A DNA stretch of 64,000 bases. It comes from Scheffersomyces stipitis CBS 6054. Lineage: Eukaryota > Ascomycota > Pichiomycetes > Serinales > Debaryomycetaceae. A program made the position numbers and the translations under genes. Shown piece by piece: positions 49,001-64,000 of this stretch (its first letter is position 1; each line of letters begins with the position of its first letter). The notes beneath the pieces were generated by a model. That model worked only from the letters and a program-made list of their open reading frames with translations, was not told where the DNA came from and did not search any database. Location of the stretch: contig NC_009042.1 in NCBI RefSeq assembly GCF_000209165.1, forward strand, positions 1,612,001-1,676,000, given 5' to 3'.

Positions 49001-49495
49001 AATTTTCCAAGTAAGCTTAGCGCTTAGTCTGAAACAACGAAGTTGGTATGAATTTGAAATACATAGAATGTAGAGTGCTACATGTGAATGTCCCAGGCAT
49101 CAGGTCATCACCGTTTCATGGATCAGCCAGGCCTAGTAAACTAGCGGCGACCTCTAACAGCGATGGTTTTAAAGCTGGCTCCTCTAAAGGGACTGCTCCC
49201 TCCAGTGGGATGATGATTATTCTACGAATCCCAAATTACAACCTGTATCTGACTAGCTCATAATGTTAACGCTAGCGCCTAATTGATACAAGTAGAATTC
49301 AAAATTCCCATAAGTAAAAAAGAACAGATTTTATAATTTCACTTCAGCTCGAGACTTATAAAGATTTTTTCCTTACAAAATCCGGGTAACTATATATGCA
49401 CTATCTTCAAACTCCTACATCAGTGAACGGCCTGCTTATAGTTGGCACAAACATTCTCTGTTAGTCAATTCTTTATAAATATAGTCCACACAGAG
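49001..49495. other. intergenic, TFA2 promoter
   Basis: AT-rich. The TFA2 frame is open from 49442 but begins with TTG; the first ATG is at 49496. Nothing else was recognised. Confidence 0.5.
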
Positions 49496-56429: not shown

Positions 56430-57419
56430 TTAAGAAAGACTGTGTATCAATTTCATACTCAGTATTGAGAAAAAACATATGCTTAACTTGACATATAAGG
56501 GTGAAATGTAATAATTATGGCAATATTTTGACTGTCCAATACATTAAGCTTCACCAGAAAATTAGAGTACTTTCTATATAACTTAACCATAAGCTTTTTA
56601 TAAATTGCAGTTCAATGCACTAAAGAGGGATTGTGGGCGTCATCAGCAATCACCATTCAACTGTAAGGTAGACAATGCTCTCAGTATTCGTGTATTATTC
56701 TATAAATGGTCTACAATGCCTAATTTCCGACGGCTCATCAAATATGGTGTCTTCGGTTTGAGAAAGGATATTAGAAGAGAGACACTCCCAGGAAGTGTCG
56801 GGGGATAGACAGAGTATGCAGTCATAGAGTAGAGGAGGTAACTGTGAGCTCTGTTGAATTTTATGGTCTCTACTTGTAAACCCTCTTAATTGACTGACCG
56901 TTTGAAATTTGTCTTTGGTATTCATTATTTGATACAACTGAACTGGCCAAGACGGAAATACCGAACTCTATAGTTATTCAACAAGTCATTCTCCAAACTT
57001 CTAGAATAACCCCCCTCAAGTGAATCATAAATAGATTAATTATTAACATGAAAACTACTCTAAACTTTGAGGATCCTGGCTCTCTTCATGGATCTTTATT
57101 ACAATATTGCCTGCACAACAGAGTGGCACCGCTTGTCTGCATTCGTGCTTGATTTTCATAACTCTTGATAATGAAGTTAATCATATATCCTAAACTAAAT
57201 ATTGGAATATAACCACCTTATTTACATTTATTTTCTCTTCCTGGAAGCTTGGAAGACTCTTCTGCAATAACATTTCGTGAGGTTCAACTGAAGAGTATTT
57301 CTAGTAGTACAGCACTTGCTATGGTGAACTTCCTTTTTGCACCTATGAAGCCATGTCTGTATACACTCACTCGGTAGTTGATTGCAGCTATTACTTCATT
57401 TCCTCCAATTTCAAAAAAT
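56430..57419. other. intergenic interval with dispersed repeat
   Basis: No gene recognised. It contains the repeat at 56852-57150 that is related to the block at 60399-60700. Confidence 0.5.
56852..57150. repeat. dispersed repeat D, copy 1 (LTR-like end)
   Basis: Related to 60399-60700: shared words include ctagaataacc, ccctcaa, gattaattat, actttgaggat and ttgcctgcaca in the same order. The part 56852-56983 begins TGTTGAA and ends TTCAACA, as the LTRs nearby do, and a purine-rich strand complement (gaggggggtt) lies 20-30 bp beyond, so it may be a degenerate LTR with a polypurine tract on the minus strand. No matching target-site duplication was found. Confidence 0.5.
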
Positions 57420-57788
57420 ATGACTGAAAGAAGCAGAATTAAAAAGAACACATTGAATGACAACAAAACAGCAGAGGAAACAGTTGGGGAACAATTTCGG
57501 AGTCCAGATGCAGAGGTGGCAGAAACATCAGCGATCAAGAAATGCGAACTCTTCAGAGTACTCAGAGCCGAACGGTATTCTTTTGAAGATAAGAAATCCG
57601 AAACATTTGAGTATCAAGACAAAGATCCCGCGACTGGATTTGTATTGTTGCCAGAAATTTATGTCGGCGCTATCAATATGGAGTCGTTATACTTGTATGC
57701 AAATGTCAGTAGAAAGGATATCATATCAATAAGAGACCTTAACTCTTCTCTTATTGACTACTGGGCAAAATATCCAGAAAATAATTAA
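57420..57788 (+). CDS. unrecognised 122-residue ORF at the edge of the retroelement cluster
   Basis: Starts at the ATG at 57420; earlier open sequence has no ATG. The first 55 residues are charged and polar, followed by a more structured half with FVLLPEIYVGAINMESLYL and ISIRDLNSSLIDYW. No Cys-rich, HTH or enzymatic motif is seen. It stops 37 bp before the last codons of the minus-strand pol remnant. It may be a real small gene, a fragment or chance. I do not recognise it. Confidence 0.4.
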   Translation: MTERSRIKKNTLNDNKTAEETVGEQFRSPDAEVAETSAIKKCELFRVLRAERYSFEDKKSETFEYQDKDPATGFVLLPEIYVGAINMESLYLYANVSRKDIISIRDLNSSLIDYWAKYPENN

Positions 57789-57824: not shown

Positions 57825-60270
57825 TTATAGACGGATCCGAGGTGGAAAAGATAGATGCTCCGAGATTGTGGAACGATCAGCACCAAGAGAAGAGACTCGA
57901 GTAGCAGAAGACACTGAAGTAGTTAATGGGGCTGGATAAAGAGAACGCACCGGGGTATGAGTCGACGGAGGCTGCGACAGAGGAGTAGTAGATGCAGCAG
58001 GAGAGACCGGTGTCGAAGCAGACGACAGAGCGGCAGATGAACCTGGCGATTGAGCAACAGTACTGCCAGATGGCGTGGATGGAGGCGAGGGAGATGGGGC
58101 CAGAGATACACGAGGACCCTGAGTGAGGCCTGGAGCGGGTGCCAGAATAGAATGAAAACTGCCACCACCACTACCTCCACCACCAATGGAGGTAGCCGAC
58201 ACGACAGTTGACGTCAGAGGTCTTACAAAAGGAAAGACATTTTCCTGGAACCGAACATGAGAAGAGGTAATCACTTGTCTGGTAGCGAGGTCATAAACAA
58301 GATGAGCTTTCCGAAACGGATCAGCTCCAAGATAAACACCCTTGATTGCACGAGCGACCAACTTCAGTTGACGGTGATTAGGTGGAACATTCACAAAGGC
58401 AGCACACCCAAACACTTTAAGTTGAGATAAGATAGGCCTCGCGCCATGCCAGAGTTCAAATGGGGAGCGATTTTGGAGAACAGGTGTTGGTAGCCGGTTT
58501 AGGAGAAATGCAGCATGTTGGAGTGCATGCGGGAAGAGCGGTGAAGGAAGAGAACACGCAGTGATCATGGTACGCGTATTATCAAGAACAGAGCGAATCG
58601 CTCTTTCAGCACGTCCATTTTGGTGTGAGTTACCAGGCACAGTGAGCTGGGTCTGGATCCCTTCTGCCGCAAAGAATGAAGTAAGCGTCAGATTGACAAA
58701 CTCACCTCCATTGTCAGAACGAACAGACACGGTAGCCACCACGACTGGAGAAGTGGTTTGTCCATGCCTTAATAACTTTGATAATGAAGTCCGCAGCATC
58801 CGATTTCTTGAGAATAGGGCCAACAGCCTTGAAGCGAGTAAAGTCGTCGAGAAGAATACAAAAATAAAACAACGAGGAGGGACCACCGGCATGAGGACCG
58901 GACAAATCACAGTGAAGAAGTTGCAAGGGAGCAGATGTGACTGGGCCGGTGGTCGTTTTGGGAATAACCCGAGTGCTCTTGGAGCTAAGACATGCTTCAC
59001 ATGAAATCGAGTCGGGAACAGCCGTGCGATGCATGTTCGGATATTTCAAGGCCAGACGAACGACAGTCGGAGAAGGGTGGCCAAGGCGAGCATGAACAAG
59101 AGCAGAGGCAGAAACAGGTGCCACACCAGGATCCGCAGCAGGAGCAGCGACCGTAACAGGAGCGGGGGCCGAGTAGGCAGAGTGGTTAGCCCGCGAGACA
59201 GTCGAGGGGCGGACGATTTCAAGACACAGCAAGTAAAGATTTCTCAGGTCTCTGGTGGCAAGTTGGCCATACTTAGGGTGAACAATATCATCATGAGAGA
59301 TAACAAGTTTGTCACCCGTAGTAGTTACAGCCAGGATGGAAAGAAGATTCTGAGTACAGTCAGGAACGTAAAGAACATTGAAGACCCGAATCTTCTGGCC
59401 ATGGAGATCAAGAGTACCGCGACCGGCAATCGAGAGAGGCTCGTGACCGGCGTTCATGACAGAACCAAAGTGAGGAATGATGTCATGGAAGAGACTTCTA
59501 TCGTTACAAATGTGGGTAGAAGCACCTGAATCAAAAATAAAGCTGGCAGAGGAAGAAGAAGCCAAGAGGGCATAGTGGGTGTAGTGAGCGAGATGAGCCT
59601 AGTAAGCACCGGGCTGGTCAAAACCAAAGGTCAGAGCATCATCCGCGAGAGCATAATGAGCAGCAGGCTTTGGACGAGAGCCGTGCTTCCTGCGGTGCTT
59701 TCCTGGACCGCCAGGACCGAAACGAGAAGCCATACGAGGAACTTCACCCTCACGATAAGGAGCAGGGCAGTTCTTGGCCATATGACCACACCCATAGCAG
59801 TTGTAGCAATCAAGCTGCCAAATCAGATCCGTACCTTTTGTTGAAATTCAGAGAATTGAAACTATAATTGTAATCTAACAATCAGATAACTATGTGCAGT
59901 ACTGGCTGCAAATTTACAAATAAGGAAGTTCCACTGGTCCTATCTCTGAGAATAGGAGTAACCCCTTATCAGACCCGCCTCAACGGAATAGAACTTATCC
60001 GTAATGAAATTGGAGGCGGGCTAGAGATAAGAATAGGGGGAGATAAGAATATGAACAAGGGGGAAGATAAGGGTGGTAGGATATTCTCCAATATCAGAAG
60101 AATAATCAGAACTTGAAATTGAACTTCATTATCAAGAGTTAACTATATCTTTATTAATATACAATGTCTAATTTTCAACACCTTTAGCCTTGATCAAGTT
60201 CCTGGTGACAGGACCCGAAGGTGAAGACAATGAGGTAAGGGCATAAGCAGATTGATATTGAAATGAGAAT
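57825..60270 (-). pseudogene. Ty1/copia gag-pol remnant (element 1), GC-rich, truncated
   Basis: Read from 60270 down to 57825. The gag end carries a zinc knuckle CYNCYGCGHMAKNC (CX2CX4HX4C), interrupted by the solo LTR at 59839-60180. After an in-frame TAG at 59601-59599 the same frame continues into protease (FIFDSGASTHICND) and integrase: HARLGHPSP and CEACLSSKSTR (HHCC), LLHCDLSGPH with the first catalytic Asp. A frameshift near 58735-58760 moves the rest (RSDNGGEF, second Asp; NSHQNGRAERA, Glu) to another frame, which ends at 57825 after KLVARAIKGVYLG and a Pro/Ser-rich tail. Reverse transcriptase and RNase H are absent. It is visibly more GC-rich than host genes. Non-functional as it stands. 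Confidence 0.85.
59839..60180 (+). mobile_element. solo LTR, family A, copy 1
   Basis: 342 bp, TGTTGAAA...TTTTCAACA ends. A 5-bp duplication CCTTT (59834-59838 and 60181-60185) marks the insertion, which splits the gag of element 1. It is identical to copy 2 except for lacking a 19-bp block containing TATAAATA. A candidate gag ATG at 60164 lies 17 bp before the LTR end. Confidence 0.93.
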
Positions 60271-60319
60271 TGTTGATATGATGGTCTCTAGTTTATGTAG
60301 ACCTCTTGATTGCCTATCC
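60256..60319. repeat. 64-bp duplicated unit, copy 1
   Basis: Repeats at 60384-60447 with three mismatches. The LTR-C fragment 60320-60385 lies between the copies. Confidence 0.8.
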
Positions 60320-60385
60320 TGTTGAAATCCGGTATTAGATAAAGTTTGATAATGCATGGATATGCATGATCTAGAAAATATCGTA
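60320..60385 (+). mobile_element. fragment of LTR family C
   Basis: 66 bp matching the first bases of the LTR at 62379 with one mismatch (g for a near position 40). It is a 5'-end fragment, with no other LTR parts attached. Confidence 0.8.
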
Positions 60386-60447
60386 TTGAGATGTGAATTG
60401 TTGATATGATGGACTCTAGTTTATGTAGACCTCTTGATTGCCTATCC
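60384..60447. repeat. 64-bp duplicated unit, copy 2
   Basis: Second copy of the unit at 60256-60319. Confidence 0.8.
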
Positions 60448-60700
60448 ATGTTGTAATTTGTCTGTCTTCTTCTTTATCTTGATACAACTGTTTAAAACAA
60501 GGCGCGCAACTTGTCTATATGGATACAGCGTATCCTACAGTTGTTCAATATGTTATTCTCTACATCTCTAGAATAACCTCCCTCAAATGAATCGTAAATT
60601 GATTAATTATAAACGTATAAACTTTTTCAAGACTTTGAGGATTTCAGCTTTCTTTTATACCTCAGAGTTGCCTGCACATCAGTGCGGCTTAATTTGCAAC
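60399..60700. repeat. dispersed repeat D, copy 2
   Basis: Begins TGTTGATATG and shares ordered words with 56852-57150. A second, 5-bp-longer start of the same type is at 60271. No target-site duplication seen. Confidence 0.55.
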
Positions 60701-60972
60701 CTGTGCGTTTCTGAATAATGCTTCTCATCTGAAATATTATTTCTTGCATTCGCAGTTTTCTTGCACGCTCAGTTTCTTGTTATATAACTAAACTTCAATC
60801 TATTGGATTACTCTAGATTTCCAATCTCAACAAGAGTTGCCTGCACATCAGTGCGGCTTAATTTGCATCTGAAATATTATTTCTTGCATTCGCAGTTTTC
60901 TTGCACGCTCAGTTTCTTGTTATATAACTAAACTTCAATCTATTGGATTACTCTAGATTTCCAATCTCAACA
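60664..60972. repeat. two-copy tandem repeat (169 and 140 bp)
   Basis: Unit agagttgcctgcacatcag... occurs at 60664-60832 and 60833-60972. The first copy has a 29-bp extra block, and the rest looks identical. The second copy contains the last codons and stop of the split gene on the minus strand, so the first copy duplicates that gene end. Confidence 0.9.
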
Positions 60973-61786
60973 TTATCTTCATACGAACTTAATTGTTCAA
61001 TAAGAATTGACTCTATATCGTCTCTTTTACCTTCTCTCACTGTAGTAACTACTTGATGTTGAATATGCTGATATCAAACCTAAAAGCATATTCTATATTC
61101 TATTTTTAATCCAATGCGTAAACTTTATGAATGCAGGATTTGCAGCCATTCAGACATAATTGTGCACAGTAATGTGATAAGATAACATCTACCAATGAGA
61201 ATCAATTATGTCCGACTAACCTGAAATTCTGGTCATGTCGTTTCATTTCATCCTGATGAGGGGTCAGCCTGTGATTGTATTTGGCATCTATATAAGGGGG
61301 TCTTACTCCCCCTTCTCCTTTCTAACTTTCTATAACTTTTCTTCTTCTATATGGAAATTATCTATCTTAAATAAGTTAATCAATATACTGTCCTACATTA
61401 TGAACAATCCGATTCAATCTACTGAGCTTCCAAAGCAAACAGTTCAACACTTGAGACGCTTTTGTATCATCGCCGCTACTTAAAAACACTGCCCACCACA
61501 AGCATTCAGTTTCTTCGTTACTGTATGTTACTGGGAAAGTAGGAGCACCATCGCCCTGGACAAGCATACTATAACCACTTTCATTCCATGCTATATACTC
61601 TTGAAAATAATCAGGACATGTTAACGCCTCAGGCTTTCGTACATCATATAAGTTGACATTACTTTTCAAGTTCACCCGTTGCAACAGCGAGTTCTTCCAG
61701 CTCAACTTTCCTAGCTTCCTTTCGCCTTTCGTAGTAGGTACGGCCGATACAATAGCCAACAAAACCAGAAAGACAAGGGTAAACAA
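60948..61786 (-). pseudogene. small secreted-type protein gene split by a solo LTR
   Basis: The minus-strand frame begins with a hydrophobic signal-like stretch (LVFLVLLAIVSAVPTTKGERK) and continues with Cys-containing segments (ALTCPDYFQEY, EETECLWWAVF) to 61450, where the LTR 61057-61449 interrupts it. After the LTR and one copy of the duplication, the frame resumes and runs 36 codons to a stop at 60948. The present LTR-encoded tail ends at 61376. No ATG precedes the signal-like stretch in frame, since a TGA lies 7 codons upstream; an ATG at 61820 is in another frame, so a second lesion or an unseen exon is possible. No known family was recognised. Confidence 0.6.
61057..61449 (+). mobile_element. 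solo LTR, family B
   Basis: 393 bp, TGTTGAA...TTCAACA ends, flanked by a 5-bp duplication CTTGA (61052-61056 and 61450-61454). It holds TATATAAG at 61289-61296, a hairpin of AAGGGGG/CCCCCTT at 61294-61314, and a candidate gag ATG at 61400, 47 bp before the end. Confidence 0.93.
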
Positions 61787-61916
61787 ACTGATTGAAAAGA
61801 TTATTCAGGAGGGTCTTCATGCGCTTCTGATTTCCTTCGATATTGCTCTAGTCTTTGAACAGATCGTTGGCTTTCTGTCCGTTTGCTGAATTCGGTTGAT
61901 GTGGAAGTGTTTTTCT

Positions 61917-62277
61917 TGTTGAAATTCAGAGAATTGAAACTATAATTGTAATCTAACAATCAGATAACTATGTGCAGTACTGGCTGCAAATTTACAAATA
62001 AGGAAGTTCCACTGGTCCTATCTCTGAGAATAGGAGTAACCCCTTATCAGACCCGCCTCAACGGAATAGAACTTATCCGTAATGAAATTGGAGGCGGGCT
62101 AGAGATAAGAATAGGGGGAGATAAGAATATGAACAAGGGGGAAGATAAGGGGTTCTGAACAATATAAATATGGTAGGATATTCTCCAATATCAGAAGAAT
62201 AATCAGAACTTGAAATTGAACTTCATTATCAAGAGTTAACTATATCTTTATTAATATACAATGTCTAATTTTCAACA
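61917..62277 (+). mobile_element. LTR, family A, copy 2
   Basis: 361 bp, TGTTGAAA...TTTTCAACA ends. It contains the 19-bp block with TATAAATA (62163-62170) missing from copy 1. Flanking 5-mers differ (tttct and actac), so this is not a simple solo LTR with intact duplication. No primer site follows; a gag fragment does. A candidate gag ATG is at 62261. Confidence 0.9.
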
Positions 62278-62378
62278 ACTACTCTCTCCTCTGCTGGACT
62301 GAAGTCTCACCAGAAAGCTCCTGCCACCTCTCCTATCTGGAATACCCGTTGCTATACGTGCTCTGGTAAGGGCCACCG
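62278..62378 (+). pseudogene. copia gag zinc-knuckle fragment
   Basis: 34 codons open between two LTRs, ending in WNTRCYTCSGKGHR, the first half of a CX2CX4HX4C knuckle. The fragment is cut by the LTR beginning at 62379. It is not in frame with the ATG inside the adjoining family-A LTR. Confidence 0.7.
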
Positions 62379-62846
62379 TGTTGAAATCCGGTATTAGATA
62401 AAGTTTGATAATGCATGAATATGCATGATCTAGAAAATATCGTAGATACCGGATATTGATAATCTAATAGATTTGGCTGCAACTCTTGTGAGAGCAAATC
62501 ATATATCATAATAAGGATATGGTGGTAATAGAAAACACAATGGCAGGTATACAGAGAGGATAATAGAACCCCACACGGACATATGGAAACAGATGTGGAG
62601 AAAGGTCTCAACCCCACAGCTATGAGATGAACGTGATGCAGAGAATAGGATCCATGAGATATTGAACAAGAATCACATGGAGCATGTGAGTGTGAGACAA
62701 CAACATAAATAAGGGTGGTATCCCCTTAGAGTTAGATAGACTTTCTAAATGTTTTAATAACGATAACGAGAACAACTTACAAGTTCTACCTTTACTGTTA
62801 ACAATTATTACACGTAAGACACTATGAATGCTTCTGAACTTCAACA
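62379..62846 (+). mobile_element. 5' LTR, family C, of element 2
   Basis: 468 bp, TGTTGAA...TTCAACA ends, immediately followed by a tRNA primer-binding site. The 5-bp flank is caccg; the partner is outside the window. A weak TATA-like stretch ataaataa is near 62705, and the gag ATG at 62824 lies inside the LTR. Confidence 0.9.
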
Positions 62847-64000
62847 GGTTATGAGCCGTCACCTGAAGTTCAACTACTCAATCTCGTTTCCTTCAGAACA
62901 AATGTTGACTTCCATCAACGACTTTTCATTATGGAAAACCAGAATGGATCAACTTTTCGAACCAATTGGAAAAGAATTTGTGGCATATCTTTTGCCTCTG
63001 ACAAATGTTGACACTGGATACACTTCTGAGGACAGATCCGCATTCAACTCCTATATTGACTTTGTTCTTTCCAAAACCTTGTCTGAGAAAGTTCGTAGTA
63101 CTCTCAGTCGTGAGCCAGTCACTGGCAGAGCACGTTGGTTACGGGTTCTTGATCTTTATGGTACCATGGATCACCACGATGTTGCTCACTATGTCAAGTC
63201 GTTATTGACAGTGATTAGCACTCCATCTTTGACAACTGACGTGGTTAAGCCGGTTTTTGACTCTCTTTATTCCTTGAACGAATCCTATACCTTTGATGAA
63301 ATTAAGGGTCTTCACCTTCTAGTTACTCGAAGTTCCCCTAATCTCATGCAAAATCACTTCCACCTGGGCAACGAATCGTTGAAGTATGATGATGTTTTCA
63401 AATTTCTAGCAAAAGCAGAGAATTCTACCGAAACTCCTACTGCTCCATCAGTTCTTGCTGCTACCTTTTCCACTGACACCAGACGTCCTTCTGTTGATGC
63501 CAATGATCCGCTTTGGAACACTAAGTGTTACAACTGTGGTGGTCGTGGTCACAGACGTGATGTGTGTTGCTCGCCTATTCGTGTTGGTAAGTATACTGGA
63601 TGGCTGACCAATACGTCCAAGAAGCGCTCCTTTAGTGACAATGAGCGCAAGAAGCAATACAAGTCAGGTGCTACTGCAAATGTTGCTGTTAACGAAAGTG
63701 CTTTCGTGCTCACTACAACCACCGGCACCACGACATCTCAGTCACCGGAGTTCATCTTTGACTCTGGTGCTTCGATTCACATTTGTCATGATCGGTCCTT
63801 GTTTTGGACTTTTAAACCGGAGTCCGGTAGTTTTGTTTCTTGTGCTGGCGGAGTTCGTCTTCCTGTCTTAGGTAGAGGGTCTATCAAGTTTAGGTCTGCT
63901 GATGAGACTATAGTCCTTCAGGAAGTATGCTATGTTCCAGAATGCACTAAGAATCTTATCTCCGTGCATGCTGCTGTTCGTGTCTCTGGTTCGCCCCTTA
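62824..64000 (+). CDS. Ty5/Tca5-like gag-protease (pol) ORF, open to right edge
   Basis: 392 codons without a stop from the ATG at 62824 to the window end. Residues 1-220 are the gag capsid-like region (FSLWKTRMDQLFEPIG is typical of copia gag). The zinc knuckle CYNCGGRGHRRDVC is at C235, C238, H243 and C248. The protease active site DSGAS starts at Asp313, followed by LGRGSIKF and CYVPECTKNLIS, conserved in copia elements. Gag and protease share one frame. Integrase and reverse transcriptase should lie beyond the edge. No lesion is seen, so the element may be intact. Confidence 0.88.
   Translation, partial: MNASELQQVMSRHLKFNYSISFPSEQMLTSINDFSLWKTRMDQLFEPIGKEFVAYLLPLTNVDTGYTSEDRSAFNSYIDFVLSKTLSEKVRSTLSREPVTGRARWLRVLDLYGTMDHHDVAHYVKSLLTVISTPSLTTDVVKPVFDSLYSLNESYTFDEIKGLHLLVTRSSPNLMQNHFHLGNESLKYDDVFKFLAKAENSTETPTAPSVLAATFSTDTRRPSVDANDPLWNTKCYNCGGRGHRRDVCCSPIRVGKYTGWLTNTSKKRSFSDNERKKQYKSGATANVAVNESAFVLTTTTGTTTSQSPEFIFDSGASIHICHDRSLFWTFKPESGSFVSCAGGVRLPVLGRGSIKFRSADETIVLQEVCYVPECTKNLISVHAAVRVSGSPL
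62847..62857 (+). other. primer-binding site, half-tRNA iMet type
   Basis: GGTTATGAGCC directly after the LTR end matches the complement of the initiator-Met tRNA anticodon arm (GGCUCAUAACC), the primer arrangement known for Ty5 and Tca5-type elements. Confidence 0.8.

What the first reader, a model, noticed from the sequence alone, without database searches (positions are those of the whole stretch)
57825..64000. Nested Ty5-like retroelement cluster, possible centromere flank
Seen: at least four LTR families or fragments, two with exact 5-bp duplications, a nested gag-pol remnant and an element with half-tRNA iMet primer site, all within 6 kb and absent from the other 57 kb. Known: in Scheffersomyces stipitis and Debaryomyces hansenii clusters of Ty5-like elements (Tps5, Tdh5) occur once per chromosome at putative centromeres. 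Inference: the right edge may enter a centromere; a subtelomere is the alternative.
Basis: partly seen in the sequence, partly recalled or inferred. Interest (0 to 1): 0.8.

Follow-up and report, generated by a model that had tools for sequence, protein, structure and literature searches.

The report
Yeast centromere edge of nested retrotransposons
The right end of this window enters the single large cluster of Ty5-like jumping elements that marks the centromere of one chromosome in the xylose-fermenting yeast Scheffersomyces stipitis, a structure already described in print.

Summary
The genome (15.44 Mb, 8 contigs) encodes a xylose reductase identical over 317/317 residues to PDB 5z6t. The window is C2:1612001-1676000. 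From 56.9 kb on it holds nested Ty5-like DNA: four LTR families (here R, B, X, D), target duplications CCTTT, CTTGA and CACCG, a split gag-pol remnant, and an element with an initiator-tRNA-Met primer site. The cluster runs to about C2:1705.9 kb (37 kb), more than 1 Mb from either contig end. GC3 of flanking ORFs falls toward the cluster. This fits the published definition of S. stipitis regional centromeres (PMC8546629). CENP-A was not testable. One side result may be new: the LTR of the noncoding LARD element shares a TATA-box segment with a repeat at all 16 chromosome ends, reading toward the telomere.

The parts
56853..57182 (-). decayed LTR of the D (LARD) lineage, outermost left member of the cluster (ends approximate)
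   Evidence: 74% over 147 bp with the D LTR (56941-57086), plus 20 bp identical to LTR B
57420..57785 (+). fragment of a scavenger-decapping (DcpS) type gene, probable pseudogene at the cluster edge
   Evidence: Pfam DcpS_C E=0.0073, below cut-off; 62% over 65 aa to an ORF at C5:1598232
57941..60255 (-). gag-pol remnant of the X-type element (integrase, SH3, Pol_BBD and zinc-knuckle pieces in broken frames), split by LTR B1
   Evidence: about 96% to copies on C1, C2 and C3; Pfam pieces, integrase and zinc knuckle below cut-off
59839..60180 (+). solo LTR B1 with 5-bp duplication CCTTT (59834-59838 / 60181-60185)
60256..60319 (-). 64-bp fragment of a D LTR
60320..60385 (+). first 66 bp of an R LTR, caught between two D LTR pieces
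   Evidence: 98% identity
60384..60972 (-). D LTR (60384-60833) of the noncoding LARD family, with a further tandemly duplicated part to 60972
61057..61449 (+). solo LTR X with 5-bp duplication CTTGA (61052-61056 / 61450-61454)
61450..61832 (-). DNA with an orphan ORF, found nowhere else in the genome, interrupted by LTR X (other part 60973-61056)
   Evidence: no other genomic match to 61452-61832; the only homologue listed is the window's own ORF; no Pfam match
61833..61916 (+). 84 bp shared at 98.8% with the LARD interior next to its primer site
61917..62277 (+). LTR B2 of an internally deleted B element
62278..62378 (+). gag zinc-knuckle piece of the same B element (100% to C2:1680340-1680440), target of the R insertion; its continuation resumes at C2:1684924 with CACCG
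62379..62846 (+). 5' LTR of a full-length R element; its 3' LTR (C2:1679129-1679388 and 1684708-1684923) is interrupted by a full-length B element
   Evidence: both 3' pieces identical to the 5' LTR
62847..62857 (+). primer-binding site complementary to initiator tRNA-Met (half-tRNA type)
62824..64000 (+). gag-pol ORF of the R element, start inside the LTR; runs to C2:1679104 (1426 codons)
   Evidence: Pfam Ty5 Gag N-terminal region and Pol_BBD above cut-off, zinc knuckle below it

Best explanation
This is the left edge of the regional centromere on contig 2 of S. stipitis: a roughly 37-kb block without ordinary genes, built by repeated, nested insertion of Ty5-like retrotransposons (the published Tps5a/b/c and LARD elements) into one another. 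Shown here: the elements, their duplications and primer site, the nesting order, near-identity of LTR pairs in CEN1-3 (recent insertion, or gene conversion), decayed copies at the outer edges, one block per contig, and the GC3 gradient. Inferred: the integrase is steered to centromeric (Cse4 or other special) chromatin, so new copies land in old ones and push older ones outward; insertion is balanced by LTR-LTR deletion, which leaves the solo LTRs and truncated pieces seen in the window; Cse4 nucleosomes are held at the block epigenetically rather than by one fixed motif.
For: Species: xylose reductase 317/317 to PDB 5z6t, 15,441,179 bp in 8 contigs. One cluster on each of 8 contigs, 22.7-43.0 kb, together 270 kb or 1.75% of the genome. 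The clusters hold R 41 of 42, B 25 of 26, X 46 of 46 listed (14 of 54 X candidates were not scored), D 23 of 41 (the other 18 subtelomeric) and RVT_2 44 of 62; the other 18 RVT_2 matches are dispersed singly with no listed LTR of these families beside them. Ty5 Gag domain: 12 of 12 matches in clusters, on 7 of 8 contigs. Duplications, tRNA pattern. Fourteen LTR pairings in CEN1-3 gave 0-3 differences each. Remnants at the outer right edge of the block are only 74-84% identical to other copies. GC3 of flanking ORFs: 0.358 within 5 kb, 0.447-0.464 beyond 20 kb, 0.483 in arm loci; Spearman 0.64, n=53; near vs far 0 of 20000 permutations. Published: S. stipitis regional centromeres are Tps5 plus LARD clusters of about 20-40 kb (PMC8546629, passages); PMC12711049 (passages) agrees.
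Against: No CENP-A or Hi-C data were read for this locus; the Hi-C calls for S. stipitis (PMC4477656, abstract and passages) were visible without coordinates. Total GC is higher in the clusters, not lower. The GC3 trend is significant on C2 (n=29) and pooled, not on C1 alone (n=17, p=0.18) or C3 (n=7, slope negative, p=0.59). No Ty5 Gag match was found in the C4 cluster.
Confidence: 0.93

Rival explanations
1. The cluster is a subtelomeric retroelement nest.
For: Ty5 of Saccharomyces targets telomeric silent chromatin (recalled); the D LTR has relatives at chromosome ends.
Against: The cluster lies at 1.67-1.71 Mb of a 2,740,984-bp contig.
Confidence: 0.01
2. The cluster is only a safe haven: Ty5-like elements pile up in gene-free pericentromeric DNA, while the true Cse4 site is a short sequence inside or beside it, such as the point centromeres once reported.
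For: In Wickerhamomyces anomalus, isolates with and without Ty5-like elements exist, and the authors propose a separate 21-bp motif as the centromere (PMC12711049, passages), so the elements can be guests.
Against: The title of Coughlan and Wolfe 2019 (seen only in reference lists) says that the reported S. stipitis point centromeres are LTRs. I made no search for a motif shared by all 8 clusters, so this rival is weakened, not excluded.
Confidence: 0.15
3. An ordinary retrotransposon hot spot with no centromere role.
For: Other copia-type elements insert singly across the arms (18 RVT_2 matches).
Against: One cluster per contig on 8 of 8, families nearly confined to them, GC3 gradient, and the published assignment.
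Confidence: 0.04

Closest known systems
S. stipitis regional centromeres with Tps5a/b/c and LARD elements (PMC8546629, citing Jeffries 2007 and Coughlan and Wolfe 2019)
   Same: Same species by the tests here; same element classes (autonomous Ty5-like plus noncoding LARD), same size range, one cluster per chromosome.
   Different: Nothing essential found. I did not see published element sequences, so R, B and X are not assigned to Tps5a, b and c.
Ty5-like centromere clusters of Debaryomyces hansenii, Ogataea polymorpha and Cyberlindnera sargentensis (PMC12711049 and PMC7482064, passages)
   Same: Ty5-like elements and LTRs clustered at centromeres.
   Different: In C. sargentensis all copies appear to be pseudogenes; here long open frames and near-identical LTR pairs are present.
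Ty5 of Saccharomyces
   Same: Initiator-tRNA-Met anticodon-arm primer site (diagnostic of the Ty5 family, PMC12711049) and Ty5 Gag N-terminal domain.
   Different: Ty5 targets telomeric and mating-locus silent chromatin (recalled); here the autonomous elements sit in the centromere clusters.

Membership tests
Ty5-like LTR retrotransposon | PBS complementary to the initiator tRNA-Met anticodon arm, directly after the LTR | tested here: met
   GGTTATGAGCC follows copies of the R, B, X and D LTRs; recalled tRNA-iMet pattern with GGGCTCATAACCC matches 3 genomic places
Ty5-like LTR retrotransposon | Ty5 Gag N-terminal domain, copia-type Pol (RVT_2) | tested here: met
   Pfam PF17241 just above cut-off, 23.8 vs 23.5 bits; RVT_2 at C2:1677692 in a 1428-codon frame
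Ty5-like LTR retrotransposon | TG..CA LTRs and 5-bp target duplications | tested here: met
   R, B, X: CACCG, CCTTT, CTTGA. The D LTR, in element orientation, starts TG but ends TA
S. stipitis regional centromere | only large Tps5 cluster on its chromosome, about 20-40 kb | tested here: met
   one per contig on 8 of 8, 22.7-43.0 kb
S. stipitis regional centromere | long gap between ordinary genes | tested here: met
   a mannosyltransferase ORF ends at C2:1668429 and a SNF5 ORF begins at C2:1706644; the ORFs of 150 aa or more between them overlap element DNA
S. stipitis regional centromere | Cse4/CENP-A occupancy and centromere clustering in Hi-C | not testable with these tools
   no ChIP or contact data held; supplementary coordinates not available
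S. stipitis regional centromere | GC trough at the centromere (Lynch et al. 2010, title seen in the PMC8546629 reference list; GC3 detail recalled) | tested here: met
   GC3 0.358 near vs 0.447-0.464 far, pooled over three contigs and significant on C2; not significant on C1 or C3 alone; total GC shows no trough

The most novel reading that the evidence does not exclude
The LTR of the centromeric LARD element and a repeat present at all 16 chromosome ends descend from one Ty5-like LTR. The shared part is a TATA-box segment and sequence downstream of it (about 115-190 bp), and every subtelomeric copy found reads toward the telomere. The relic may therefore serve as the promoter of a telomere-directed transcript (TERRA-like), so that one LTR lineage would supply promoters both in centromeric and in telomeric chromatin. 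The sequence relation and orientation are shown; the promoter role is inference.
Probability: 0.2. Interest if true: 0.55.

Novelty: already known. Interest (0 to 1): 0.3.

Why it matters
It confirms from raw sequence that a centromere can be recognised by a single nested Ty5-like cluster per chromosome, and it places the window at a centromere edge of a biofuel yeast. Whether such elements make the centromere or merely target it is still debated (PMC12711049, passages); elements with near-identical LTR pairs in all three clusters read here (CEN1-3) make S. stipitis a good place to test that. The shared LTR segment at centromeres and all telomeres would be new ground if it proves functional.

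Tried and rejected
Subtelomere: rejected by position. Total-GC trough: not found; the clusters are richer in GC than their flanks. Host-gene capture by LARD: 84 bp at 61833-61916 are shared with the LARD interior, but the direction of transfer cannot be told. Orphan ORF at 61450-61832: no Pfam match and no relative listed. tRNA genes in the window: none (bacterial settings). Rfam: only snR42 at 49086-49369, unrelated. PMC2997560 is not held. Hi-C coordinates for S. stipitis were not in the passages seen, and no supplement look-ups were allowed. A search for a motif common to all eight clusters was not made.
Full report
Identity of the source. The window is C2:1612001-1676000 of a 15,441,179-base genome in 8 contigs. 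One of its aldo-keto reductase genes (C5, locus L015), read with CTG as serine, is identical over 317 of 317 residues to PDB 5z6t, named NAD(P)H-dependent D-xylose reductase; that this is the S. stipitis enzyme is recalled. Whether contig 2 bears the published number 2 was not checked.

What is in the window. Read left to right from the last ordinary gene (a mannosyltransferase ORF ending at window 56429): a decayed D-lineage LTR (56853-57182); a DcpS-type gene fragment (57420-57785) with a partial paralogue on C5; a gag-pol remnant on the minus strand (57941-60255) split by LTR B1 with duplication CCTTT; a mosaic of D LTR, a 66-bp R LTR end and D LTR again, with a tandem duplication (60256-60972); DNA with an orphan ORF, interrupted by LTR X with duplication CTTGA; 84 bp shared with the LARD interior; a deleted B element (LTR B2 joined to a gag zinc-knuckle piece, 61917-62378); and the 5' end of a full-length R element (62379 on) with an initiator tRNA-Met primer site and a Ty5-type Gag.

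Nesting beyond the edge. The R element sits inside the B gag piece: CACCG flanks it on both sides, and the B sequence resumes at C2:1684924 as in the B element at C2:1680436. The 3' LTR of R is in turn interrupted by a full-length B element (C2:1679387-1684708, duplication CGTGA). Then follow a LARD (1685343-1689006, minus orientation, duplication CTTCA) and two X elements (to 1702682). Beyond them comes a partial gag-pol copy (1702683-1703696, 96-97% to another copy; SH3 domain in its ORF), a B LTR, and older remnants at 74-84% identity out to about 1705930. The next ordinary gene is of SNF5 type, at 1706644. Young copies in the middle and decayed ones at both outer edges fit insertion targeted to the middle of the block.

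One cluster per chromosome. Listed LTR matches in the whole genome: R 42, B 26, X 46, D 41. The tool calls its counts lower bounds; for X only 40 of 54 candidates were scored. Clustered at 15-kb linkage together with RVT_2 matches, each of the 8 contigs has exactly one large cluster, of 35.0, 34.1, 39.1, 29.6, 22.7, 25.1, 41.4 and 43.0 kb for C1 to C8 (C2 is 37 kb with the decayed LTR of the window added). Inside them: R 41 of 42, B 25 of 26, X 46 of 46 listed, D 23 of 41, RVT_2 44 of 62. The exceptions are one R fragment (C6:33961), one B LTR (C7:557819), 18 subtelomeric D matches, and 18 single RVT_2 matches in the arms with no listed LTR of these families beside them; these may belong to the arm families Ava, Bea and Caia named in PMC8546629 (not tested). 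The Ty5 Gag family PF17241 has 12 matches, all in clusters, on 7 of 8 contigs (none on C4).

Control inside the window. The first 56,800 bases have no match to the held CEN1, CEN2 or CEN3 regions at E 1e-5; of the last 7,200 bases, 5,706 are covered by matches to other copies.

Composition. Total GC is 0.435-0.436 in the three clusters examined and 0.372-0.405 in their flanks, so there is no total-GC trough; an earlier analysis also noted overall high GC in 20-40-kb intergenic regions with repetitive skew, found on eight of nine P. stipitis chromosomes as then assembled (PMC2924309, passages). GC3 of flanking ORFs of 150 aa or more, however, falls toward the cluster: 0.358, 0.372, 0.417, 0.464 and 0.447 in bins of 0-5, 5-10, 10-20, 20-30 and 30-60 kb; 20 ORFs in arm loci average 0.483. 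Spearman 0.64 over 53 ORFs; near (under 10 kb, n=25) versus far (20 kb or more, n=21), 0 of 20,000 permutations. By contig: C2 0.67 (n=29), C1 0.34 (n=17, p=0.18), C3 -0.25 (n=7, p=0.59).

Age. Fourteen LTR pairings of elements in CEN1-3 differ at 0 to 3 aligned positions each. Pairs were assigned by position, and two sets share a middle LTR. Both 3' pieces of the window's R element are identical to its 5' LTR. This points to recent insertion, though gene conversion could also homogenise LTRs.

Literature. PMC8546629 (passages) states that S. stipitis regional centromeres are composed of Tps5a, Tps5b and Tps5c and LARD elements, and identifies them as the only regions with a large Tps5 cluster of about 20-40 kb, citing Coughlan and Wolfe 2019 (not read; title seen in reference lists). 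PMC12711049 (passages) lists S. stipitis among yeasts with Ty5-like centromere clusters and discusses whether such elements make or merely follow centromeres. PMC4477656 (abstract and passages) made Hi-C centromere calls that included S. stipitis; I did not see the coordinates. I did not see published centromere coordinates or sequence, so the identification rests on that definition and on the absence of any other cluster on C2.

Side result. The D LTR query has 18 matches outside the clusters, all near contig ends, on 14 of 16 ends. A 900-base query from C1:501-1400, which contains the shared segment, hits all 16 ends, and at each end a match covers the segment (query positions 206-319) (40 of 48 candidates scored). 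Lengths of C4-C8 were not fetched, but subtracting the lengths of C1-C3 and the highest matched coordinates of C4-C8 from the genome total leaves 3,154 bases for all five right ends together. All 18 D matches are oriented so that LARD-sense reads toward the telomere. The homologous stretch is LARD-LTR sense positions 163-352 in one subtelomeric copy (71%) and 169-283 in the other (77-78%); the TATA box is present in both copies read, and the decayed LTR at 56853 is related too (74%). On four ends there is an inner D match 8.3-8.7 kb from the outer one, start to start, which suggests a tandem subtelomeric unit. I take the subtelomeric copies as relics of a Ty5-like LTR spread by exchange between ends; a promoter role is untested.

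LARD interior. The 2.77-kb interior has no open frame over 91 codons and contains about 14.7 copies of a 50-bp tandem repeat. Five full copies lie on C1, C2, C4 (two) and C8, and a shorter one on C7, at 98-100% identity; decayed pieces lie on C3 and C5.

Verdict. Real, correctly interpreted, and already in print for this species; novelty is low, and the side result is the part worth following.

Noticed in passing
window 60384-60833 (D LTR); C1:705-819, C2:9333-9512 and 16 further places near chromosome ends: A TATA-box segment of the centromeric LARD LTR is related to a repeat found at all 16 chromosome ends, with every D match oriented toward the telomere.
   Followed up: partly
L031:7366-8101 (C2:1687366-1688101): The LARD interior carries a 50-bp tandem repeat of about 14.7 copies; LARDs are nearly identical on C1, C2, C4 (two) and C8.
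   Followed up: partly
window 61450-61832 and 60973-61056: Orphan ORF inside the cluster, found nowhere else in the genome and interrupted by LTR X; the adjacent 84 bp are shared with the LARD interior.
   Followed up: partly
window 57420-57785: DcpS-like (scavenger decapping) gene fragment at the cluster edge, 62% over 65 aa to a C5 ORF.
   Followed up: partly
window 49086-49369 (-): snR42 H/ACA snoRNA (Rfam RF01265, 65.1 bits).
   Followed up: no
C7:557819-558179: A 99% identical B LTR far from the C7 cluster, the only near-full-length exception to confinement listed.
   Followed up: no
C1, C2 and C4 left ends, C7 right end: Two D-related matches 8.3-8.7 kb apart on the same end suggest a tandem Y'-like subtelomeric unit.
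   Followed up: no
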